Origin: Paraconexibacter algicola | Lineage (GTDB): Bacteria > Actinomycetota > Thermoleophilia > Solirubrobacterales > Solirubrobacteraceae | Direction of reading: 5' to 3' | Assembly: GCF_003044185.1 (NCBI RefSeq) | Contig: NZ_PYYB01000001.1 | Span: forward strand, 434,001-498,000 | Length of the DNA stretch: 64,000 bases | Part shown: piece by piece, positions 50,687-62,844 of the stretch | Position numbering within the stretch: the stretch's first letter is position 1 | Layout of the letters: every line of letters starts with the position of its first letter | Position numbers and translations under genes: made by a program | Notes under the pieces: generated by a model | Seen by the model: the letters and a program-made list of their open reading frames with translations, nothing else | The model's database searches: none | What the model was told of the DNA's origin: nothing

Positions 50687-50977
50687 CTACGAGGAGACGA
50701 TCGAGCGGACCGTGCTCTCGGCCGAGGCGTAGCGCTGCTGGGCCTGCTTCAGGTCCACCGAGATCTGCTCGAAGAACTGCCGTGCCTCCTCCACCTCCTT
50801 GACGTGCTGGTTGAAGCGGCTCTTGAACCCGTCCGAGGCGGTGCCGTCCCACATGCCGTCGAGGTTGCCGACGGCGCGCACGGCGTCCTGCTTGGCCTCG
50901 TCGACGAACTGGGCGGCGTTGCGGAAGAAGGTCGAGCCGTTGCCGAGGATCTCGGGGGTCACCTTGATGTGTGCCAT
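50687..50977 (-). CDS. WXG100 family protein (ESAT-6/EsxA-like), type VII secretion substrate
   Basis: 96 residues from ATG 50977 with an AGGAG site. Helix-turn-helix hairpin with the turn motif W43-D44-G45 (WDG instead of WXG's third Gly position filled normally: W-D-G). A C-terminal YxxxE (Y83-E87) matches the T7SS export signal YxxxD/E. 46 of 96 residues are identical by my hand alignment to the second WXG100 protein at 53086-53376. WXG100 proteins are small helical hairpin dimers exported by FtsK/SpoIIIE-type ATPases. Last gene of the minus-strand locus. Confidence 0.92.
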   Translation of the reverse strand: MAHIKVTPEILGNGSTFFRNAAQFVDEAKQDAVRAVGNLDGMWDGTASDGFKSRFNQHVKEVEEARQFFEQISVDLKQAQQRYASAESTVRSIVSS

Positions 50978-51025: not shown

Positions 51026-51244
51026 CTAGCGGCGCACCCCGCGGATCGCGGGAAGCTCGATGTAGGGCTCGACGCTCGGTGGGGGGACCGCGCGCACCAC
51101 GCCGGCCGCCGGGATCTCCGGGTCCCCGGGCGCGGTGAGGATGCCGACGGCGCCGCCGAGCAGCAGCAGCCCCAGGACCGTCGCGGCGATGGTCGCGATG
51201 CGGCGATACTTGGAGACGGGCAGTCGCAGGGAGGGACGCCTCAT
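51026..51244 (-). CDS. Small single-pass membrane protein of the type VII-like locus
   Basis: 72 residues from ATG 51244, which overlaps the pseudokinase stop by four bases (ATGA). A basic N-terminus (MRRPSLRLPVSKYRR) is followed by one transmembrane helix IATIAATVLGLLLLGGAVGIL and a Pro-rich extracytoplasmic tail. It could take the place of the small membrane subunit EssA, but size and sequence do not prove it. Tightly coupled between pseudokinase and WXG100 genes. Confidence 0.7.
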   Translation of the reverse strand: MRRPSLRLPVSKYRRIATIAATVLGLLLLGGAVGILTAPGDPEIPAAGVVRAVPPPSVEPYIELPAIRGVRR

Positions 51245-53016
51245 CGACCCACCCGGAACCCGAGGCGCCGCAGGCGGCGGACGCTCTCTCGCAGATCGGC
51301 GTCGGCCCGGAGCGCCTCGCGACGGAGGCGACGCGTCGGCGCTCGCTGCCGCAGGGCGACCGAGTACCGGTCCCAGCGGGTCGCGGCGCTGCTCAGCCGT
51401 CGCTGTACCCCGTCGGTGGCCACCGCGGCGATCGGGCCGAGCTCCGCCAGCGCGTTGCGGGCGGCGCGGTAGGTCTCCGCCAGGTCGCGGCCGCCCTGGA
51501 TGCGCTCCTCGAGCCGCCGCGCCTGGAGGCCGCCGACGGGCTCCGAGCGCTGCTCGCCGAGATCCTCGAATACCGTCTGGATCCCGCGCACCAGCGCGGT
51601 CGGCAGCCGTGGTGGCACGGCGCCGTCGAGCGCGGCGGTCGTGATCGTGCGGGCGCAGATCGCCTGGCTGGCCGAGGCGCACCGCGCGACGAGGGTCCGG
51701 TCGCGCGCGGGTCGCGCAAGGACGACGCCGTCGGCCGCCGTGTATCGGAGGATCTCGGTGCCGCCCGCGGCGACCACGGTGGCGGTGTCGGTCGGGTCGA
51801 TGCCGAGACCCTCGAGGGTCTCGCGGTTCAGCGGGTCGGGCGGCGGACCAAACGGGAAGACGGCGAGACCGGTCGACGTCCCGGGCACCGCGCCCTCGGG
51901 CCGCCCGGTGATCGCTGCCCGTGCCCCGGCGAAGGTCGCTGGTGCCGCGTCGAGCAGCGCGGGCACCGCGATGCCGTCGATCTCGGCGACGGGGCGCGGC
52001 TCGGGCGCGAGCAGCCGTCCGCCGGCGAGCCCGAGCGCGACGACCGCCATCCCGGACGCGGTGATGAGGCCGGCTCGTGCGATGCGGCGCCACGTGTTCG
52101 TCGGGGTGGCGTCCTGGGCTTCCGGCGAGGCGACGAGGACCCGGTCGATTCGCGTGACGCTGCCGATCTCGGGCAGGTGCGCCACGGTCCGGCCGAGCGG
52201 CACGCGCGTGCTGCTGCCGTCGGTGGTCGCGGCGAGGAACGCCTCGACGAACGCGGTCGGGCTGGGCCAGCGCTCCTGGGGGTCGAGGGCGAGCGCGCGG
52301 GCCAGGACGCGTTCGGCGCCGGGCCACCAGGGGGCGTCGAGCTCCGGGATGACGACGGGGGCCGACCGACGGACCACGACGGCGCCGTGGTCGGCGCCCT
52401 CGTACGGCGCCTGGTCGGCGAGGGCCAGGAGGGCGAGACCGCCGAGGCCGAAGACGTCGCTGCGCGGCTCGGCGCGCCCGGCGATTGCCTCGGGTGCGAG
52501 ATGGCGCATGCGCTCGAGCAGGGTGTCGTCCGCGACCCGGGTGGCGCCGCTGAGGCGCGAGTCGCCGAGGTCGGCGAGGAGGCCGTCTCCGCGCCGGTGG
52601 ACGAGGATGCTCGCCGGGCGGACCTCGCCGTGCACGATGCCGACGGCGTGTGCGGCCTCGAGTCCCCGGGCGACGTCGAGCAGGACCCGTCCGAGACCGC
52701 CGACCGTCAGCGTGCCCGCGCTGTCGGCGAGCGGCACGGCGTCGACGGCTGCGGTGACCACGTAGAACCGGCCCCCGGGCAGGTAGCCGGCGTCGAGCAC
52801 CGGCGTGAGCCCCGGGTGCTCGATCCCGGCGATCCCGCGGACGACCCGGAGCAGGTCGTCGTCCTGCGCGCCTTCGGCGAGGAGGTGGAGCCGGATCGTG
52901 ACCCGGCGGCCGAGCGCGGTGTGACGCGCCCGCAGGACGGTCGAGCCGGCGCCGCGCGAGACGACGCGCTCGACGACGTAGCCGTCGATCTCGGGAAGGG
53001 TGTCCTGCAGGGTCAT
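51241..53016 (-). CDS. Membrane pseudokinase, EssB/YukC-like in architecture
   Basis: 591 residues. Residues 10-265 have a Ser/Thr kinase fold pattern but key residues are changed: VAIK lysine is R42 (RVTIRLHLL), HRDxKxxN is H129-G130-E131-x-R133-x-x-S136 (HGEVRPAS), and DFG is D149-L150-G151; the APE motif (174-176) and later D187 are kept. It should therefore not phosphorylate efficiently. One membrane helix (about 314-334) follows, then about 255 residues outside, mostly helical near the end. Firmicute EssB/YukC has just this order: cytoplasmic pseudokinase-like domain, single helix, extracytoplasmic helical domain. It lies between two WXG100 genes, with ATGA overlap to the next gene. Confidence 0.82.
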   Translation of the reverse strand: MTLQDTLPEIDGYVVERVVSRGAGSTVLRARHTALGRRVTIRLHLLAEGAQDDDLLRVVRGIAGIEHPGLTPVLDAGYLPGGRFYVVTAAVDAVPLADSAGTLTVGGLGRVLLDVARGLEAAHAVGIVHGEVRPASILVHRRGDGLLADLGDSRLSGATRVADDTLLERMRHLAPEAIAGRAEPRSDVFGLGGLALLALADQAPYEGADHGAVVVRRSAPVVIPELDAPWWPGAERVLARALALDPQERWPSPTAFVEAFLAATTDGSSTRVPLGRTVAHLPEIGSVTRIDRVLVASPEAQDATPTNTWRRIARAGLITASGMAVVALGLAGGRLLAPEPRPVAEIDGIAVPALLDAAPATFAGARAAITGRPEGAVPGTSTGLAVFPFGPPPDPLNRETLEGLGIDPTDTATVVAAGGTEILRYTAADGVVLARPARDRTLVARCASASQAICARTITTAALDGAVPPRLPTALVRGIQTVFEDLGEQRSEPVGGLQARRLEERIQGGRDLAETYRAARNALAELGPIAAVATDGVQRRLSSAATRWDRYSVALRQRAPTRRLRREALRADADLRESVRRLRRLGFRVGR

Positions 53017-53085: not shown

Positions 53086-53376
53086 TCAGGTGGCGACGGT
53101 CCCGCGGACCTCGTCCTCGGCCTGGTCGTACTCGTTGCGGGCGCTCCGAAGGTCCAGGGCGAGCCGCTCGAAGAACTCCTTGGCCTCCCGCGCCTCGCGC
53201 AGGTGAGTGTGGAAGCGGGACTTGAACGCCTCGGATGCCGTTCCGTCCCATCCACCGTCGAGGCTGGCCACGGCGTTCTTGGCCTTGGCGATGGCGGTCT
53301 CCATCTTGTTGGCCGCGTTGTCGAACGACACGGCACCCGCCTCCAGCGCTTCCGTCGTGATCTTGATGTTTGCCAT
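53086..53376 (-). CDS. WXG100 family protein, second copy
   Basis: 96 residues from ATG 53376 with an AAGGAGA site. W43-D44-G45 in SLDGGWDGTAS, then FKSRFHTHLREAREAKEFFERLALDL, and Y83xxxE87 at the C-terminus. Same length as the copy at 50687-50977, with identical turn region, so the two may form a heterodimer. A promoter-like element (TTGCGC-N12-TAGATT) lies 44 bases upstream, inside and beyond the end of the EssC-like gene, so this gene has its own start signal and a strong hairpin after it, consistent with high expression. Confidence 0.93.
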   Translation of the reverse strand: MANIKITTEALEAGAVSFDNAANKMETAIAKAKNAVASLDGGWDGTASEAFKSRFHTHLREAREAKEFFERLALDLRSARNEYDQAEDEVRGTVAT

Positions 53377-53420: not shown

Positions 53421-53444
53421 AATCTATGCAGAATCTTGGCGCAA
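53421..53444 (-). promoter_or_regulatory. Promoter-like element B of the type VII-like locus
   Basis: Read on the minus strand: TTGCGC, 12 bases, TAGATT, with TTGCGT 17 bases upstream of TAGATT as a possible -35. It overlaps the stop codon of the EssC-like gene and stands 44 bases before the WXG100 start, which carries a good SD. The same spaced pattern occurs at 59692-59715 and 62853-62876. Confidence 0.6.
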
Positions 53445-56400
53445 CGCAATGTCGGGTCGCGCCACCTGCACGGGAACGACCTGCCCGCCGTCGACGAGCA
53501 CACCCCGACCGGGAAGCCGTGGCGCCCGCTGCAGCGACCGCGGATAGGTCACCCCGAAGACGTCCCCGTCGTCGACCGATGGCTCGAGGTGCACCGCGCA
53601 GCCCTGCCGACGCAGGGTCTTCAGCCATGGCGAGTAGTGCCGCAGCTGCGCGGACTCGATGGCGGCGATCACGCGGACGGCCCCGTCCCGCCCGGCGGCG
53701 AGGAGCGCCTCGAGATCGTCGTCGGCTCGCAGGACGTCCTCCAGCTCCACCGCATCGTCGACCACGACGAGCAGGACGGGACCGTCGGGGTCGCGGAACT
53801 CCGGCACCCGCGTCAGCAGCGCCTTGAGCGCCGCGGCGCAGTCGGCCACACCACGCACCTGCGACGTCCACCCGGGCATCCCGGCGAGCGACGACCGGCG
53901 CGGGAGCAGCAGATGGGCCTCCGCGACGTCGTCGATCAGGCCCTGGGCGATCGTCGCGACCGTCGTCGAGCGCCCGGTCCGCATCGGACCCGCGACCAGC
54001 AGGTGGCCGCTCTCGAGGCTGACGCCGATCGCCGAGAGACGCTCGCCCTCCACGCCCAGGGTCGCCGTCAGGCGACCCTGGGCCGGCCCGAGCGGTGCGA
54101 GGTCCACCACGGTCGGCATCCGCCCGATCGCCGGCGCACGCTCGATCTCGCGGTCGGCCACGGTCGCGGCCCAGGCGCGGAACGCGGCGTCCTCCTCCGT
54201 CGCCAGGGTCGTCGCCGCGGTCCGCGCGATCTGGACCTCGAGGTCCCGATCGAGGAATCCGCGCCCCGCGGGCAGGTCCGGGCCACCGACGCCTGCGGCG
54301 AGCCCCAGCAGCGCATAGTCGTCCTCCGCGGCCATCCGCAGGACGAGCCGCCGCGGGACGGCGGCCGCGATCGGCGTCGGGATCGATGCCCGGCGGTCGC
54401 CGGAGATGACGAGGTGGATCCCTGCGCCCCGGCCGTCGGCGACGAGCCGGACGACGAGATCCAGGAGCCGCCCGCGCTCGACGTCCTGGAACGCCTCGGC
54501 GAACGCGGTCCAGCCGTCGACCAGCAGGACGTGACGGGGCAGGGTCGCGTCGGGTCGCCGCTCGCGGAGCGTGTCGAGGTCGTTGGCGTGCTCCTGGACG
54601 AACGCTCGCTGGCGCTCCTCCAGCGTCTCGACGAGCAGCTGCAGCACGCGCTCGACGCGCTCGACGTCCTCCGGCACGACGACGGCGGAGGTGTGCGGCA
54701 GGTCCGCGAGCTGCCGCAGCCCTCCTCCTCCCGCGTCGATGGCGTGCAGGTGCAGTCGTCGGACCGGGGTGTCCGCGGCGAGGCTCGCGGCGATCTGGCG
54801 CAGCGTGGACGACCGCCCCGAGCCCGACGCCCCATAGACCAGGAACGAGCCGACGGCACGGAGGTCCACGCGCGCGACGGTCTGTCGTTGGCGGCGAGGC
54901 TCGTCGGCCAGTCCGAGGGTCGCCACGCCGTCCGGTTCGGGACCCAGGTCCCCGAGGTCGGCCCGTGCGATCGCGGGCGGGAGGGGCGCCAGCCACGGCC
55001 GCGGGGGCGCGACCTCCCCGGCCAGTGCTGTCGCCTCCTCGATCGTCGCGACGAGCCGCTGCAGGTCGGTCGGCCCCTGGTCCACGTCCGGCCGGGCGCT
55101 TGCGCCGACGTCGTCGGAGCGCAACCGGATGCGCACCGAGCCGTCGTCCTCGCCGGGGCGCGGGGTCCAGCCTCCGCCGTAGGCGGTCTGGACCTCGGTC
55201 AGCTCGCCGGGGCCGATCCGCACCAGGACGCGTCCCGGGATGGAACGCGGAAGCCGGGCCGCGTCGGGGACGTCGACGACGTCGTCGCTGTCCTCGGTGG
55301 ACGCGACGCGCAGCGCCATCCGCAGGGTCGTGTTCGCGCGGATGTTCGCCGTGATCGCACCGCTCGGGCGCTGGGTGGCGAGGACGAGGTGCACCCCGAG
55401 GGAGCGACCTCGCTGGGCGACGTCCACGACGCCCGCCACGAACGCCGGGACCTCCTTGGCGAGCGTGGCGAACTCGTCGATGACGATGACGAGTGGCGCC
55501 GGCGCGTCGGCGGAGCGGCGCTCGAGCTCGAGCAGGTCCTTGGCACCGGCCGCGGCCAGCAGGTGCTCACGGCGCTTGAGCTCCGCCTCGAGCGAGACGA
55601 GCGCCCGTCGGACCTCGTGCTCGTCGAGATCGGTGACGAGGCCGACGCAGTGCGGGAGCTGTCCGACGTCCTTGAACGCCGCGCCGCCCTTGTAGTCGAT
55701 CAGGAGGAACGACAAGCGCGACGGCGGGTGCGCTGCCGCGAGCGACGCGATCATCGTCTGCAGCAGCTCGCTCTTGCCGGCGCCGGTGGTGCCGGCGACG
55801 AGTCCGTGCGGACCCTGGTCGCGCAGATCGATCTCCCAGGGACCGTCCGGCCCGGCACCGAGCGGCGCGGCGAGCCCTGCCCCGGTGAGGTCGTCCCAGC
55901 GGTCCATGATGGGCTCCGGCTGCAGGTCCGTGAGATCGAGCAGCTCGAGCAGCGAGACGCGCCGGGGCAGCTCTCCGCCGCCGGCGGCGGTCACGTCACG
56001 CAGCGGGGCGAGGCTGCGCCCGATGCGGTCCGCGGTCTCGAGCTCCAGCTGGTCGACGGTCATGTCCGCGATGTGGACGCCGCTGGCCGCCCAGGTCGCG
56101 CTGCCGCGCCCCGGCTGGTCCGGGTGGAGCTCGACGATGGCGCCGCACCCACCGGGGAGGTCGGCGCGCTGCCCGGCGAGCCAGAGCACGTGCACCTCGT
56201 GCTCGGCGCAGCCCTCGAGCAGGGACGCCACGACGCTGCGGTCGGGTGCGACGACATCGTCCAGCACCAGCAGCACGCCGGTACGCCCCGTCTGGCGGGG
56301 ACGGTCGTCCGCGCGTCGTTCCGCGAGCACCGCGATGACCGTGCGGACGAGCTCGTCGGTCGCCTGCCGTCCGATCGCGATGCGGTCACCGTCGATCAGG

Positions 56401-57821
56401 GTCGAGGGCGCGGTGACGTGCGGCAGCCACGAGAGCCAGGTCTCCTGCTCGGCGAGCGCCTCGGAGATCCCGGCCACGATGACGAGGTCGAGCGGGCTGC
56501 GCAGCGTCGCGGCCTGCACGAGCATCGCGCGGGCGGCGGCGTGGCGCGCGGCCTCCGGGCCGACGACGCCGACAGCGCCCACCGTGCGCAGGTCGACCAT
56601 CACCGGAACGGCAGGGACCGTCATCAGCGGCTCGAGGCTGTCGCGGGCCTCCTGCCGCAGCTCGATGTCGCCGGTCCGCGGGAGCTCGATGGTCGCCTCG
56701 GTCGGCTGGTCCGCGGTGCCGAGACGCAGTGCCATCGCATCGGGGTCGGTCGCCCTGCGCTCCCAGAGCTCGGCTTGGAGGCCCGTCGCACGCGCCTCCA
56801 GCTCGGCGAGGTCCGGTGCGAGCCGCCGCCGGGCGGCCCGCTCGTGGGCGTGGTCGATCACCAGCCGCTCCCGTTGCTCGACGAGGTCGTGCTCCCACGC
56901 GCGGACGTCCTGCGCGTGCTCGGAGTCGTCGTAGCGCCGGTCGGCGATCGCGTTGGCGAGCAGCAGCACGGGCGTGAGGCAGGCCATCACGATCGCGATC
57001 GGAGAACGCGTGATGAGGTAGATCGCGATCCCGATGACCATCGGCATGGCGATCAGGAACCAGGGGATCTGCTGACGCCGCTGGCGCATGGGCGGGCTGT
57101 CCAGACGCACCGATCCGGGGGCGTAGGTCGTGCGGATCCGGGGCGGCCGGTTGAAGGGCACGGCGCCGGCCGCCCCGGCGGCGGGGACGCGGGAGGCGGC
57201 GACACGGACGGTCAGCGGCGCGTCGACCACGGCGAAGACCGTGCGGCCCGCCTCGACGACCGCGCCACGCTCCAGGACCTCCGGGGTCTCGGGGCGCAAT
57301 GGCCGACCGTCGACCGCCGTGCCGTTGCTCGTGCCGAGGTCGCTGACGACCACCGTTCCGCCGGGGTCCACCACGAGCGCGACGTGCTCGCGAGACAGCG
57401 CCGGATCCTGCACGGTCACGTCGGCGGCTTCCGCCCGGCCGATGGTCGTCCGCCCGGGGGGCAGGGCGATCCGCGCGCCGGCCCGACATCCGCCGACGAT
57501 GCGCAGCTCGACCGCGGTCGCCGCGACGTCGACCTCCCGACCGAGGCGGCCCAGGGCGACGATGTCTCCGTCCCGCAGGCCACTGGCCGCGACGGTGGTC
57601 ACGCCGGAGATCGCCCCGAGCCGCCGGACGTCGAGGCCCCCCGGCGCGTCGACGCCGAGCCGGTCGGCCAGCGCCGCCGCGACCGCACCGACGGTCGCGG
57701 TCGCGGGCGCGTCGATCTCGACGTCGACCGGATCACGTCGCGGCCCCGGAATGACCGAGAGCCGCAGCGTGGAACGGGCCACGCGGACCGGGTCCTCGCG
57801 GCGCTCGCGCATCTCGGTCAC
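53424..57821 (-). CDS. FtsK/SpoIIIE ATPase of type VII secretion, EssC-like, with N-terminal Ubl-like and FHA domains
   Basis: 1465 residues from GTG 57821. Residues 15-95 resemble the ubiquitin-like YukD/EsaB or EccD N-terminus (ending GLRDGDIVALGRL). Residues about 105-195 are an FHA domain with G128-R129, S143, H146 and N166, able to bind phosphothreonine. Two membrane helices (about 252-292) follow, then three ATPase modules: Walker A GTTGAGKS near 677-684, degenerate GASGSGRS near 997-1004, and GPMRTGRS near 1276-1284 (Lys replaced by Arg in the last two). Order and size match EssC of Firmicutes more than EccC of mycobacteria, which lacks FHA domains. It powers export of WXG100 proteins across the membrane. 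Confidence 0.93.
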   Translation of the reverse strand: MTEMRERREDPVRVARSTLRLSVIPGPRRDPVDVEIDAPATATVGAVAAALADRLGVDAPGGLDVRRLGAISGVTTVAASGLRDGDIVALGRLGREVDVAATAVELRIVGGCRAGARIALPPGRTTIGRAEAADVTVQDPALSREHVALVVDPGGTVVVSDLGTSNGTAVDGRPLRPETPEVLERGAVVEAGRTVFAVVDAPLTVRVAASRVPAAGAAGAVPFNRPPRIRTTYAPGSVRLDSPPMRQRRQQIPWFLIAMPMVIGIAIYLITRSPIAIVMACLTPVLLLANAIADRRYDDSEHAQDVRAWEHDLVEQRERLVIDHAHERAARRRLAPDLAELEARATGLQAELWERRATDPDAMALRLGTADQPTEATIELPRTGDIELRQEARDSLEPLMTVPAVPVMVDLRTVGAVGVVGPEAARHAAARAMLVQAATLRSPLDLVIVAGISEALAEQETWLSWLPHVTAPSTLIDGDRIAIGRQATDELVRTVIAVLAERRADDRPRQTGRTGVLLVLDDVVAPDRSVVASLLEGCAEHEVHVLWLAGQRADLPGGCGAIVELHPDQPGRGSATWAASGVHIADMTVDQLELETADRIGRSLAPLRDVTAAGGGELPRRVSLLELLDLTDLQPEPIMDRWDDLTGAGLAAPLGAGPDGPWEIDLRDQGPHGLVAGTTGAGKSELLQTMIASLAAAHPPSRLSFLLIDYKGGAAFKDVGQLPHCVGLVTDLDEHEVRRALVSLEAELKRREHLLAAAGAKDLLELERRSADAPAPLVIVIDEFATLAKEVPAFVAGVVDVAQRGRSLGVHLVLATQRPSGAITANIRANTTLRMALRVASTEDSDDVVDVPDAARLPRSIPGRVLVRIGPGELTEVQTAYGGGWTPRPGEDDGSVRIRLRSDDVGASARPDVDQGPTDLQRLVATIEEATALAGEVAPPRPWLAPLPPAIARADLGDLGPEPDGVATLGLADEPRRQRQTVARVDLRAVGSFLVYGASGSGRSSTLRQIAASLAADTPVRRLHLHAIDAGGGGLRQLADLPHTSAVVVPEDVERVERVLQLLVETLEERQRAFVQEHANDLDTLRERRPDATLPRHVLLVDGWTAFAEAFQDVERGRLLDLVVRLVADGRGAGIHLVISGDRRASIPTPIAAAVPRRLVLRMAAEDDYALLGLAAGVGGPDLPAGRGFLDRDLEVQIARTAATTLATEEDAAFRAWAATVADREIERAPAIGRMPTVVDLAPLGPAQGRLTATLGVEGERLSAIGVSLESGHLLVAGPMRTGRSTTVATIAQGLIDDVAEAHLLLPRRSSLAGMPGWTSQVRGVADCAAALKALLTRVPEFRDPDGPVLLVVVDDAVELEDVLRADDDLEALLAAGRDGAVRVIAAIESAQLRHYSPWLKTLRRQGCAVHLEPSVDDGDVFGVTYPRSLQRAPRLPGRGVLVDGGQVVPVQVARPDIALRQDSA

Positions 57822-57840: not shown

Positions 57841-59685
57841 TCAGATCACGCTCGTGCGACGGAACCCGGGCGGCGGACCGCAGTCGCAGTCCGGCAGCTG
57901 GCTGCCCCCACCGCCGGTAGGCGGCGGCACCGACGTGCCCGGGTCCGCCGGCGTCGCCGGCGCGGGCTTCTTGTCGCAGTCCTGGGGGAAGGGGCGCTCG
58001 AAGTACTCGAACGAGCCGTCGAGCAGCGTCAGGTCCGCACTTGCGGAGAAGGGTCCGAGCGTCGCCTCCGCGCTGAGCCCGAGGGCGCCGCTGCCCTTCG
58101 CCTCCACCTTGACGCAGTTGGCGGCCCGTGGATCCCCGACGGGGTAGACCGGGGACACCGTGGCGTCCAGCGGGAAGAGCGAGCCCTTGACGCCCGCGAC
58201 GAGCGAGGCTCCTGGGGCGGCGCCCCCCGGACCGATCAGCAGCTCACCGCCGAGACGGGCTCGGAGCGAACCGGAGAGCTCGGCGCCTTCGGGAGCCAGG
58301 TACTCGCGCTCGAGGACCGGGCGGGCCCGGGCGTCCCCTGGGAACCGCCCCGAGACCTCGAAGCCCGTGGCCGTCTTGACCCCACCGCCGCTGTACCTCA
58401 GCGATCCGGAGGCGTCGAGCTGCACCTTGGGCGTGAACGTCATCGCGAGCGGCACCGGGGGCGGGGAGATCTGGGTCTTGATCGACGCGAGCTCCGCCGA
58501 GCAGGCGAGGGAGGCCTTGACCTCTGCGTAGGCCCGGGTCTCGCTGGTGACGACTCCCCGCACGTCCAGCGTCACGCCGACCGGCACCTCGACGTTCGTG
58601 AACCGGATCTTCCGCTTGGCGAACTCGTAGCGGAACCGGCCGTCGAGGCCCAGCTTGCTCTCGATCCCCAGATCCGAACCGGCGGCGAGCTTGCACGACG
58701 ACATCTTCTTCGCCCGCGCGGAGGCCCTGGAGGCGGGCTTCGCCGGCACCGCTGCCTGAGCGAACCCCGGGATGTCGATGTTCACGTAGTCATAGGCCTC
58801 GGGAAGGCTCGCGGGGACGAGCTTGACGGTGCCGTCCTGCGCGACGCCGGCGACCCGCCCGACGAACGGCAGGTCGATGGCGCCCTTCGCAGGGACGACG
58901 AGATGGCTGCCGATGGTCGGCGCTGCCTCACCGGCCGCGAGCTGGACGCCGACCCCGTCGGACAGCTCGCGCGCGGCGGTGAGGTCGCGGCTCTCGAGGA
59001 TCTCGGTCCCGGTCGCGGCGACGAAGGCCGGCACGGCGTTGCCCGGCGCCGGGGCGGTTCCTACGGTCAGCGTCGCCGGCCCGAGCGTGCGTCCCCCGGT
59101 CACGGTGAAGACGCTGTACGAGTACTGCGATCCGGGCGTCAGGCCGGTGTCGCTGGCCGCGCTGCCGACCACGGCGACCGCCGTGCCCGCTGACGGCGTC
59201 GCGGGTGCGTCGAAGCCCGGGGCACGGCGCACGACGTAGGACGCGCCGGCCGGACCGCTCCACGAGAACGACAGCGTGGTCGGCGAGATCTCCGAGGGCG
59301 TGAGCGCGCTGGCGGTCGGGAGCAGCACGTAGCGCAGCGTCAGCTTCGCCGAACGGCGGGCCCGGATCCGGACGCGCGCGGGCGATGCCGCCGGACCGTA
59401 GAGGCGACCGTCGTGCTGGAGGACCGCGGCGTCGACCGTGTAGGTCGCGGCGCGGAGCTTCAGGGTCCGGCGGAGGACGGTGCCCCGGTCGGCCTTCGCG
59501 GCGACGACGCGGCGAGCGCCGGCGCGGAGCGTGGCGGTGGCCGGCACGCCGGAGGGGGTGCGGATCTCCAGCTTCAGCGAGCCCGTCCGCGGCGCGGCGT
59601 CGGCGGCTGGAGTGGCGAGGAGCGGGAGCATGCCGGCCGCGATGACGACGGCGACGCGGGGTGCGCGGAGCTGGTTGGAGAACAC
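57841..59685 (-). CDS. Secreted fibronectin-III protein in the type VII-like locus
   Basis: 614 residues from GTG 59685. Signal peptide about 1-30. A beta domain (about 33-120) and a fibronectin III domain (about 120-210: TLSFSWSGPAGASYVVRRAPGF) are followed by beta-rich sequence without known motif and a Cys/Pro/Gly-rich C-terminus (DCDCGPPPGF). No family for the rest. It lies 19 bases before the EssC-like gene on the same strand, hence likely cotranscribed. A candidate promoter ends six bases upstream of GTG, suggesting a leaderless transcript. Confidence 0.72.
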   Translation of the reverse strand: MFSNQLRAPRVAVVIAAGMLPLLATPAADAAPRTGSLKLEIRTPSGVPATATLRAGARRVVAAKADRGTVLRRTLKLRAATYTVDAAVLQHDGRLYGPAASPARVRIRARRSAKLTLRYVLLPTASALTPSEISPTTLSFSWSGPAGASYVVRRAPGFDAPATPSAGTAVAVVGSAASDTGLTPGSQYSYSVFTVTGGRTLGPATLTVGTAPAPGNAVPAFVAATGTEILESRDLTAARELSDGVGVQLAAGEAAPTIGSHLVVPAKGAIDLPFVGRVAGVAQDGTVKLVPASLPEAYDYVNIDIPGFAQAAVPAKPASRASARAKKMSSCKLAAGSDLGIESKLGLDGRFRYEFAKRKIRFTNVEVPVGVTLDVRGVVTSETRAYAEVKASLACSAELASIKTQISPPPVPLAMTFTPKVQLDASGSLRYSGGGVKTATGFEVSGRFPGDARARPVLEREYLAPEGAELSGSLRARLGGELLIGPGGAAPGASLVAGVKGSLFPLDATVSPVYPVGDPRAANCVKVEAKGSGALGLSAEATLGPFSASADLTLLDGSFEYFERPFPQDCDKKPAPATPADPGTSVPPPTGGGGSQLPDCDCGPPPGFRRTSVI

Positions 59686-59738: not shown

Positions 59739-60527
59739 CTACCGTCGCCTCGGACAGCGGACCCGGCGGTTGCCGTTGTCGGGGTCCGAGCAGCGGATCA
59801 CCCGTCGGGGCACGTCGAGCACGAGGCTCCTGCGCCCCCGCTTGAGCCGATAGCTCTGGCTCTTGGTGATGCTGCCGGGGCGGCTGACGACGAAGTAGAT
59901 GCGCTGACCGGCTCGCACCGGCATCGGCGGTCGAGCGAGCTCCCGCCGAGAGTTGCGGTTCCCGCGCCGCTCCACGTAGCGGAAGCCGTTCCCGCAGACC
60001 GGTCGGCAGAACACGTCGAGCTGGGTACCCGCGTCGACGGCGTCCAGCTCGCGCAGGACGAGCGCCCGGATCACGTCGCGATCCTTCGCAGGCCGCGGCT
60101 TGCGGTACTCCAGCTCGATGGCCGGGAAGTCGAGGACCACGGGCGCGTCACTTCCTGCCGTCGTGAACGTGACCGTCTGGAGGACGGGATAGGTCGCCTG
60201 GTCGGGAGGACGGACGAAGATCCGGGCCGCGTACTTCGCGCGCGGGACCAGCCCGCGCAGCGTCGTGGTCGTCCGGTGCCCCGACGACGGGACGACCCGC
60301 TCGGCGGTCCGCGTCCCGCGAACCGCAGGGGCGCTGTACTCCACGAGCCACTTCCACCCTGCGGGGACGTCGAAGGTGATGTCCAGCGCGGCGGTGGTTC
60401 GCGTCACGGTCCCCACGGTGACCGTGACTCCGGGCGCCGGCGTCTGCGCTTGGACGACGCCGAAGCCGACGAGCAGGATCGTCCCGACCAGCGCGACCAG
60501 TGCCCCACACGTGCGGGCCGGACGCAT
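59739..60527 (-). CDS. Exported FnIII-like protein of unknown function
   Basis: 262 residues from ATG 60527. An N-terminal hydrophobic segment (ALVALVGTILLVGFGVVQA) serves as signal or anchor. The sequence then resembles a fibronectin-III domain (VEYSAPAVRGTRTAERVVP, YAARIFVRPPDQATYPVLQTVTFTTAG), then a beta-rich domain with CRPVCGNGF and a basic C-terminus. Its ATG overlaps the upstream gene's stop by one base (TGATG). Confidence 0.72.
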   Translation of the reverse strand: MRPARTCGALVALVGTILLVGFGVVQAQTPAPGVTVTVGTVTRTTAALDITFDVPAGWKWLVEYSAPAVRGTRTAERVVPSSGHRTTTTLRGLVPRAKYAARIFVRPPDQATYPVLQTVTFTTAGSDAPVVLDFPAIELEYRKPRPAKDRDVIRALVLRELDAVDAGTQLDVFCRPVCGNGFRYVERRGNRNSRRELARPPMPVRAGQRIYFVVSRPGSITKSQSYRLKRGRRSLVLDVPRRVIRCSDPDNGNRRVRCPRRR

Positions 60528-60910
60528 CAGTCGACCCCGGTGGGACCGTCGCTCGGGGGTGCGGGCCGCGGCGCCGGACGCGGCACCACCACGGGCGGGC
60601 GCGGCACGACGGGCGGACTCGGCTGCACGGGCGTCACCGGCGCGCTGCGGGACGGGGTGCCCCTCGCCGGCTGGACGGGTGACGCGACGCTCCGCTTCGG
60701 CCGCCGGGGTCGTGCGAGCGCGCGGACGTCGATCCGCCCGGCGGGCAGTCCGGCCGGGGGCACCGTCACCGGACCCGGGGCCGCAACCACCTCGGTGGCC
60801 CCGAGGTCGCGCCACGGATCGTCGTCGGGTGCGGTCGCCTGCGCCACCCCGAGCCCGCCCACGGCGCCCAGCAGCGCGAGCGCTCCGCCGAGGACCGCCG
60901 AACGGCTCAC
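60527..60910 (-). CDS. Proline-rich protein with N-terminal membrane segment
   Basis: 127 residues from GTG 60910 (GTGA overlap with the kinase stop). Hydrophobic AVLGGALALLGAVGGLGVAQA near the start, then Pro/Arg-rich low complexity (PVVPRPPVVVPRPAPRPAPP). It is probably anchored or exported; Pro-rich chains of this kind can span the cell wall. Translationally coupled on both sides in the kinase operon. Confidence 0.65.
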   Translation of the reverse strand: MSRSAVLGGALALLGAVGGLGVAQATAPDDDPWRDLGATEVVAAPGPVTVPPAGLPAGRIDVRALARPRRPKRSVASPVQPARGTPSRSAPVTPVQPSPPVVPRPPVVVPRPAPRPAPPSDGPTGVD

Positions 60911-62844
60911 CGCCCCGCCTCCTTCACCGGATATCCCAGGCGCCCGGCTCGCGCCACGCGGTCGCGCAGCGCTCGGAGCGCCGAGGACAGCGCGCGCCCG
61001 GCCTTCCTGTGCCTGCCGCGGTCCGCGGTCGCGGCGGCGCGGGCGAGCGCGCGGGCTCGCGCTGCCGCCCGGTCAGTGCTCGCCACGACGCTCCGCAGCG
61101 CCGTGGACCGGCCCTCGCGGCGCTCCTGCGCCGCCAGGGGACGCAGTCGCGCGGAGACCGACCGCAGCGTGCCGACGAGCTCGCGCGCGGCGCGGGCCTG
61201 TGTCGCGCCGCGCCGCGACGCCTCCAGCACCCCCTTGGCGGTCCCGACCGCAGCGCGCAGGCGGTCGACCTGGACGCGAACCGCCTCGAGCCGCGCGCGC
61301 GGGATCCCCAGCGGCACGGACGTCGCGCCGCGGACCCGCAGCGTCGCGACGAGACGGAGACAGGCGACGGTCCCGTCGCAGCGCAGCTCGACGTCACCGG
61401 TCGTGGTCGGGACGACGAAGCGGTCGCCATCCTGCATCGCGACGAAGGCACCGAGGCGGACTGGGCGCGGGGCACGCAGCGGCACGCCGTCGACCGGGGC
61501 GGCACCGGCCAGCGGCCCGCGGCTGGGCAGCACGGTCGCCCTCAGCGTGGTCCCGGCGACCCGCACGGTGCCCCCGGAGTCGGTCCGCCGGACCTGCGCG
61601 GCCGCGTCGACGGGTCCGAAGCTCAGCCCGCCCCCGAGGCGGACCGGCACCGTGTCGGCAGGGCCGGCCGGCCGGGCGAGCGCGAACCCGGCGACGAAGA
61701 GCAGGACGGCGGCGAGACCTCCCACGATCCGCGCGTCGACGGCCGGGAGCGTGGGCCGTTGACGGGCGGCACGCGGCTCGGGATCCCGCCTGGGCTTCGG
61801 TGGCGTCTCGCGCTCCGCCGCGGCGGCACGGGGCGGTGCGGGCACGGCGACGACCGGCGGCGGGGGCTCGACGTCGCGCTCGGGCGCCGCGACGGGCTCG
61901 GGCACGATCGCGGGTGCAGGATCAGGATCCGGGGCGACCGGCGTCGCGCTCTCCAGGAGCGGGGCCGACGGGAACATCGGCGCCAGCCCGAGCCGCTCGG
62001 AGCCCAGGCCGACGAGTGCGTCGCGGATGTCCGCGACGAACCGCTCGACGTCCGTCTCGCGGTCGACCGGATCCTTCGCCAGAGCCCGATCGAGGACCTC
62101 CTGGATCCGTCGCCCCTCGGGGCCGTCGAGCCCCGGAAGGCGCGGCGGGGGATCGGCGAGATGCGCCATGAGCACGGCCGCCTCGGTCGGACGCGGGAAC
62201 GGCACCTGGCCGGTCAGCAGCTGACACGCGAGGCAGGCGAGGGAGTAGACGTCCGAGGCCACCGTGAGGTCCTCGGCCTTGATCTGCTCCGGGCTCGCGT
62301 AGGCGGCCGTCCCGACGAACGCTCCCGTGGCGGTGAGCCCCGCGTCCGCGACGCCCTTGACGACCCCGAAGTCCGCGAGGTACGCCCACCCGGCGCGCGT
62401 GAGGAGCACGTTCTGGGGCTTGATGTCGCGATGGACGAGTCCGGCGTCGTGTGCCGCGGCGAGCGCGCTGCCGACGGCGCGGAGCAGCTCGAGCGCTTCC
62501 CGGCCGCTGAGCGGCCCCTGGCGCAGGCGGTCCCCGACGGTCCCACCGTCGACCAGCTGCATCGCGATGTAGAGGTGCCCGTCCGCCGATCCGAAGTCGT
62601 AGACGGGGACGACGTGCGGATGCTCGAGTCCTGCGGCGGTCCGCGCCTCACGCTCGAACCGCTGGACGAACTGGGTGTCCGAGGCCAGGCTGCGGTCCAT
62701 GACCTTGAGCGCGACCGGGCGATCGAGGGAGACCTGACGGGCGGCGTAGACGGTCGACATGCCGCCGAGTCCGACCAGGCGCTCGATCCGGTACGCGCCG
62801 ACGACCTCCCCCGCCTGCAGATGTCTCCCGATCCCGACGCTCAC
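60907..62844 (-). CDS. Transmembrane Ser/Thr protein kinase (PknB-like)
   Basis: 645 residues from GTG 62844. Complete kinase core: glycine loop LGGMSTVY (about 26-33), K47 in VALKVMD, HRDIKPQN (138-145), DFG (158-160), PEQ (185-187) and D198. A Pro-rich linker leads to one membrane helix (about 372-390) and an extracytoplasmic region of about 250 residues, Arg/Ala-rich and probably helical at the end. It probably phosphorylates partners of the type VII-like machine; the FHA domain of the EssC-like ATPase is an obvious reader. The promoter-like element A lies 8 bases upstream of GTG. Confidence 0.92.
   Translation of the reverse strand: MSVGIGRHLQAGEVVGAYRIERLVGLGGMSTVYAARQVSLDRPVALKVMDRSLASDTQFVQRFEREARTAAGLEHPHVVPVYDFGSADGHLYIAMQLVDGGTVGDRLRQGPLSGREALELLRAVGSALAAAHDAGLVHRDIKPQNVLLTRAGWAYLADFGVVKGVADAGLTATGAFVGTAAYASPEQIKAEDLTVASDVYSLACLACQLLTGQVPFPRPTEAAVLMAHLADPPPRLPGLDGPEGRRIQEVLDRALAKDPVDRETDVERFVADIRDALVGLGSERLGLAPMFPSAPLLESATPVAPDPDPAPAIVPEPVAAPERDVEPPPPVVAVPAPPRAAAAERETPPKPRRDPEPRAARQRPTLPAVDARIVGGLAAVLLFVAGFALARPAGPADTVPVRLGGGLSFGPVDAAAQVRRTDSGGTVRVAGTTLRATVLPSRGPLAGAAPVDGVPLRAPRPVRLGAFVAMQDGDRFVVPTTTGDVELRCDGTVACLRLVATLRVRGATSVPLGIPRARLEAVRVQVDRLRAAVGTAKGVLEASRRGATQARAARELVGTLRSVSARLRPLAAQERREGRSTALRSVVASTDRAAARARALARAAATADRGRHRKAGRALSSALRALRDRVARAGRLGYPVKEAGR

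What the first reader, a model, noticed from the sequence alone, without database searches (positions are those of the whole stretch)
51241..53016. Pseudokinase may be the EssB/YukC counterpart
Catalytic Lys is Arg42, HRD is HGE, the kinase Asn is Ser136, while DxG and APE survive; then one membrane helix and an external helical tail. EssB has a kinase-like fold without activity, one helix and an external domain. Matching architecture and location between WXG100 genes make orthology or convergent replacement plausible.
Basis: partly seen in the sequence, partly recalled or inferred. Interest (0 to 1): 0.8.

Follow-up and report, generated by a model that had tools for sequence, protein, structure and literature searches.

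The report
Type VII secretion pseudokinase, EssB-like role
A protein-secretion gene cluster carries a working membrane kinase and a decayed copy of it, and the decayed copy looks like an independently evolved stand-in for the EssB scaffold of other type VII secretion systems, not a descendant of EssB.

Summary
The minus-strand gene 53016-51241 (591 aa) is a one-helix membrane pseudokinase: R42 for the beta3 Lys, HGE for HRD, S136 for Asn, alphaC Glu lost; DxG and APE remain. It lies between two WXG100 genes, downstream of a ubiquitin-like+FHA+EssC ATPase. It is not an EssB/YukC orthologue. No YukC match exists in it, its genome or 299 class genomes. Its profile matches EssB at 0.04% probability, but matches the intact kinase Kin2 of the same cluster full length, ectodomain included (E 1e-43). 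Two related genera carry the same degenerate kinase beside EssC. The three form one clade on kinase domains without motif columns (100/98) and, separately, on ectodomains (100/98). Decay is graded. The origin is therefore duplication and decay of a T7SS kinase resembling TscD/TsdD/TseD. An EssB-like docking role on EssC's FHA domain is plausible by convergence but unproven. That FHA keeps its phosphothreonine-binding residues, unlike T7SSb EssC, so a phospho-regulated dock fits. Structure prediction failed (pLDDT 37 and 43), so the ectodomain fold is untested beyond a helical tail.

The parts
51241..53016 (-). PsK: degenerate Ser/Thr kinase (R42, HGE131, S136, D149 kept), one TM helix ~312-334, ectodomain with Cys pair and helical bundle
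51026..51244 (-). 72-aa single-TM protein, ATGA overlap with the PsK stop; similar small TM genes follow both orthologous degenerate kinases
50687..50977 (-). WXG100 protein b (TsxA/EsxA type)
53086..53376 (-). WXG100 protein a (TsxA/EsxA type), 48% identical to b
53424..57821 (-). EssC-type ATPase, 1465 aa: N-terminal ubiquitin-like (YukD-type) domain, one FHA domain with intact pThr-binding residues, TM region, ATPase domains
60907..62844 (-). Kin2: intact Ser/Thr kinase (VALK, HRDIKPQN, DFG), TM, ectodomain related to PsK; paralogue of PsK
60527..60910 (-). 127-aa Pro-rich protein with N-terminal hydrophobic segment, directly after Kin2
57841..59685 (-). 614-aa secreted protein with an fn3-like stretch; no BLAST match in the related T7SS loci examined

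Best explanation
PsK is a dedicated component of this type VII secretion cluster. It arose by duplication of a membrane Ser/Thr kinase of the cluster (the Kin2 / TsxD kind) followed by stepwise loss of catalysis. It most likely works as a non-catalytic membrane scaffold: its kinase-fold domain and juxtamembrane segment dock on the FHA/ubiquitin-like head of the EssC ATPase, while its ectodomain faces the envelope and may pair with the related ectodomain of Kin2. Because the EssC FHA domain keeps its phosphothreonine site and an intact kinase is in the cluster, docking is probably switched by Kin2 phosphorylating a PsK threonine. That makes it EssB-like in role by convergence, with a phospho-switch that EssB lacks. 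Shown: pseudokinase sequence, cluster membership, paralogy, clade with two orthologues, intact FHA site, absence of EssB. Inferred: docking, phosphorylation, pairing with Kin2.
For: Paralogy: profile match to Kin2 over 572 columns, E 1e-43. Clade of three degenerate kinases at EssC loci of three genera: 98/96, 100/98 without motif columns and without other pseudokinases, 100/98 on ectodomain alone, where it groups with four active T7SS kinases at 96/97. Graded decay K-HRD-C, R-HRE-A, R-HGE-S with alphaC Glu lost in all three. Co-directional genes in the window; small TM gene after each degenerate kinase. FHA pThr residues (GR, SxxH, NG) kept in ten class loci examined (window included), lost in three Streptomyces/Curtobacterium relatives with no recognised kinase among the neighbours tested and in two T7SSb EssC. 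Precedents: YukC pseudokinase domain co-purifies with the YukB FHA region (PMC9600267); phosphorylated MviN pseudokinase binds FhaA (PMC11898655).
Against: No interaction, phosphorylation or secretion data. Only three members are known, so conservation is thinly sampled. The candidate FHA ligand around T288 (TRID/TRVE/TRVD) is barely above shuffles (15 of 300 as good). Other T7SS loci of the class manage with an intact kinase alone, so PsK is not obligatory for the system. PsK sits on a long branch (1.8-2.0 changes per site).
Confidence: 0.6

Rival explanations
1. PsK is chiefly a regulator of Kin2: it pairs with Kin2 through the related ectodomains and allosterically activates or restrains it, or senses an envelope ligand, with no structural role in the secretion channel.
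For: Shared ectodomain type with conserved Cys pair and helical tail; all three genomes with the degenerate kinase also have a clade-A intact kinase.
Against: In G082 the intact kinase lies about 5 kb from the degenerate one, whereas the degenerate gene is nearer EssC. A kinase-fold domain of EssB type is already known to bind EssC FHA.
Confidence: 0.22
2. PsK is a highly diverged true orthologue of EssB/YukC.
For: Same order of parts (kinase-fold domain, one helix, external domain) and same type of neighbours.
Against: No YukC match at E 10; hhalign 0.04%; full-length homology to intact Kin2; clade with partly intact kinase G068; Cys-pair ectodomain; EssB absent from 299 class genomes.
Confidence: 0.03
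3. PsK keeps ATP binding or an atypical transferase activity, so it is a pseudokinase by motif only.
For: The DxG Asp is kept in all three orthologues and G068 keeps Lys, HRD and DFG.
Against: In the window copy Lys, alphaC Glu, catalytic Asp and Asn are all replaced and the glycine loop is altered.
Confidence: 0.08
4. PsK is a relic on its way to loss, without function.
For: Found in only 3 of about 8 T7SS-bearing genomes of the family; long branch in the window copy.
Against: Intact 591-codon frame with typical codon use (GC3 0.93), kept with its small TM partner and ectodomain Cys pair in three genera.
Confidence: 0.07

Closest known systems
TscD / TsdD / TseD kinases of T7SSc, T7SSd and T7SSe (Garrett et al. 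2024, PMC11217815)
   Same: T7SS-cluster membrane Ser/Thr kinase with cytoplasmic kinase domain, one TM and an external C-terminal region; FHA-bearing EssC with conserved pThr site as in T7SSd/e
   Different: TscD is reported with its kinase active site conserved; PsK is a second, degenerate copy next to an intact one. Their sequences were not compared here. T7SSd is reported without a ubiquitin-like protein, whereas here one is fused to EssC.
EssB/YukC of T7SSb (PF10140; PDB 6Z0F, 2YNQ)
   Same: Catalytically dead kinase-fold domain, one TM helix, external domain, T7SS cluster with FHA-bearing EssC
   Different: No sequence or profile similarity; PsK descends from a local active kinase; ectodomain has a conserved Cys pair; EssC FHA here keeps pThr-binding residues
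PknA/PknB-type bacterial Ser/Thr kinases
   Same: Kinase domain recognisable by plain phmmer (E about 1e-17) and Pfam PF00069
   Different: Catalytic residues replaced; ectodomain is not PASTA
MviN pseudokinase - FhaA pair of mycobacteria
   Same: Model for a pseudokinase that, once phosphorylated by an active kinase, is bound by an FHA domain
   Different: Cell-wall flippase, not secretion; analogy only
ActPs1-3 actinobacterial pseudokinase families (PMC12599244)
   Same: Actinobacterial pseudokinases, many membrane-anchored; ActPs2 also has Arg for the beta3 Lys
   Different: ActPs2 has HRD to HRN, usually a DFG deletion and a long activation-loop insertion; PsK has HGE, keeps DxG, no insertion

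Membership tests
EssB/YukC (PF10140) | Match to the YukC family model | tested here: not met
   No match at E 10 for PsK and two orthologues; control EssB proteins match at 1e-61 and 1e-76
EssB/YukC (PF10140) | Degenerate kinase-fold cytoplasmic domain | tested here: met
EssB/YukC (PF10140) | All-helical external domain homologous to EssB | tested here: inconclusive
   No profile similarity; PDB profile search finds mainly designed coiled coils, no EssB; 3D fold not predicted with confidence
EssB/YukC (PF10140) | Binds the FHA region of EssC | not testable with these tools
   Needs experiment or multimer modelling
T7SS-linked membrane Ser/Thr kinase (TsxD kind) | Cytoplasmic Ser/Thr kinase domain, one TM, external C-terminal region, encoded with EssC and WXG100 genes | tested here: met
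T7SS-linked membrane Ser/Thr kinase (TsxD kind) | Conserved kinase active site | tested here: not met
   R42, HGE131, S136; met instead by Kin2
T7SSd system | FHA-bearing ATPase, WXG100, kinase, small TM protein, large Ig-like protein | tested here: inconclusive
   First four kinds present; the fn3 protein of 614 aa is smaller than TsdI and not conserved in related loci; TsdC sequences were not compared

The most novel reading that the evidence does not exclude
A distinct type VII secretion variant runs on an enzyme-pseudoenzyme kinase pair: the active kinase phosphorylates its own dead paralogue, which then docks on the FHA head of a ubiquitin-fused EssC. The graded decay among orthologues would show in living lineages how an EssB-type scaffold arises from a T7SS kinase, a route that EssB itself may have taken long ago.
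Probability: 0.3. Interest if true: 0.8.

Novelty: new variant of a known kind. Interest (0 to 1): 0.6.

Why it matters
The origin of EssB's dead kinase fold is unexplained as far as I know. A second T7SS pseudokinase, still recognisably related to the intact kinase of the same cluster and caught at different stages of decay in three genera, gives a concrete model for how a secretion system turns a kinase into a scaffold. Because the FHA phosphothreonine site is intact here, it also makes phospho-control of a type VII system directly testable.

Tried and rejected
EssB orthology: rejected. AlphaFold2 without a deep alignment gave pLDDT 37 for full PsK and 43 for the ectodomain with two window rows; no fold search was run on such models. 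Relatives from the genome search are not among the sequences the structure tool says it accepts, so they were not submitted. The juxtamembrane TRxD motif was tested against shuffles and is only marginal. Ectodomain Pfam scan: nothing above threshold. Literature search for T7SS with Thermoleophilia or Solirubrobacter: none.

Full report
Observation. The gene on the minus strand, 53016-51241, encodes 591 aa. Its N-terminal ~260 residues are a Ser/Thr kinase fold by sequence: Pfam Pkinase 2.5e-10, phmmer to PknA 8e-18 and PknB 7e-15 in the PDB. The alphaC glutamate is also gone (Val). One hydrophobic helix lies at about 312-334 and is followed by a ~260-aa external part. Among 29 kinases of related genomes that match it best, all keep the four catalytic residues, so the loss is not the local background.

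Setting. On the minus strand, in order of transcription: Kin2, an intact kinase (62844-60907); a 127-aa protein with a hydrophobic N-terminus; two fn3-like secreted proteins; an EssC-type ATPase (57821-53424; best NCBIfam models EssC and EccC); WXG100a; PsK; a 72-aa single-TM protein whose ATG overlaps the PsK stop codon; WXG100b. The EssC N-terminus is a ubiquitin-like domain: YukD is the leading Pfam family for 7 of 10 relatives (best 1.4e-5) and the profile matches ubiquitin folds in the PDB (best 4.5e-6). No separate YukD was found in the genome. An FHA domain follows, with the phosphothreonine-binding residues GR, SREH and SNG intact.

Relatives. EssC of this type occurs in 8 of 101 close relatives and 10 of 299 genomes of the class. 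In G068 (L042) and G082 (L044) a kinase with a PsK-type ectodomain lies close to EssC and is itself degenerate: VLKF, HRDLRPDC, DFG in G068; ALRV, HREVRPEA, DFG in G082. Both genomes also carry an intact kinase of the Kin2 clade, in G068 overlapping EssC and in G082 about 5 kb beyond the degenerate one. A search of 146 genomes of the family found these close ectodomain relatives only in G000, G068 and G082, so the degenerate copy is rare. Other T7SS loci of the class (G062, G204, G259, G180, G072) show only an intact kinase at or near the locus; in G079 and G296 one is on another contig.

Trees. Kinase domains: PsK, G068 and G082 form one clade (98/96) and Kin2 groups with four intact T7SS kinases (97/98). 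Because shared loss of motifs could create such a group, the tree was repeated without the motif columns and without four unrelated pseudokinases: 100/98. The ectodomain alone gives the same clade (100/98), and it groups with four active T7SS kinases (96/97), although the Kin2 ectodomain is too divergent to place. The duplication thus predates the three genera and decay advanced to different degrees.

EssB. YukC (PF10140) matches neither PsK nor its orthologues at E 10, is absent from the genome and from 299 class genomes, and works as a control on two plasmid-borne EssB proteins. hhalign of the PsK family against those EssB proteins gives 0.04% for the whole protein and for the ectodomain, against 100% and E 1e-43 over 572 columns for Kin2. 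EssB is therefore an analogue at most. Sequence comparison alone cannot exclude a very remote common kinase ancestor, but it places PsK with intact kinases of its own kind of cluster.

How it may work. In B. subtilis the pseudokinase domain of YukC co-purifies with the FHA region of YukB/EssC (PMC9600267). Garrett et al. (PMC11217815) describe T7SSc/d/e kinases TscD, TsdD and TseD; TscD has EssB-like topology but an intact active site, and FHA phosphothreonine sites are conserved in T7SSd/e and lost in T7SSb. Here the FHA site is kept in ten class loci (window included) and lost in Streptomyces and Curtobacterium relatives whose EssC neighbours tested include no recognised kinase, as well as in second-copy EssC proteins of G068 and G062. 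The simplest reading is that Kin2 phosphorylates PsK (or itself), and the phosphothreonine docks on EssC. A juxtamembrane TR[VI][DE] motif at T288 is a candidate, but is only marginally above shuffles (15 of 300). Mycobacterial MviN-FhaA is a precedent for a phosphorylated pseudokinase bound by an FHA domain (PMC11898655). Shown: pseudokinase sequence, paralogy, clade, cluster, FHA residues. Inferred: docking, phosphorylation, partner pairing.

Limits. Structure prediction was uninformative: pLDDT 37 for the full protein and 43 for the ectodomain, where only the last ~100 residues reach about 57-73 as a helical bundle. Only three orthologues are known.

Noticed in passing
window 51244-51026; L042 ~4542-4303; L044 15579-15794: A small single-TM protein directly follows each degenerate kinase (window copy's pairwise scores beat about 99% of shuffles); possibly the TsdH kind. 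A Pro-rich small protein follows Kin2 (60910-60527), and a similar one lies between the degenerate and intact kinases in G082 (L044 18021-18404).
   Followed up: partly
window 57821-57540 (EssC residues ~1-95): Ubiquitin-like (YukD-type) domain fused to the N-terminus of the FHA-bearing EssC; no separate YukD found in the genome. T7SSd was reported to lack a ubiquitin-like protein, so a fusion could have been overlooked there.
   Followed up: partly
L060 (G036), L062 (G016), L069 (G060), L072 (G022): Other degenerate kinases carry the same ectodomain type in genomes where no EssC of this type was found: separate pseudokinases, not grouped with PsK.
   Followed up: partly
L096-L098 (Streptomyces and Curtobacterium plasmids): EssC relatives of 35-36% identity with the same N-terminal layout but FHA phosphothreonine residues lost and no recognised kinase gene beside them.
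   Followed up: partly
L043 (G068 contig 253, 16000-35000): A second EssC next to the first in G068, with degenerate FHA residues and its own WXG100 gene.
   Followed up: no
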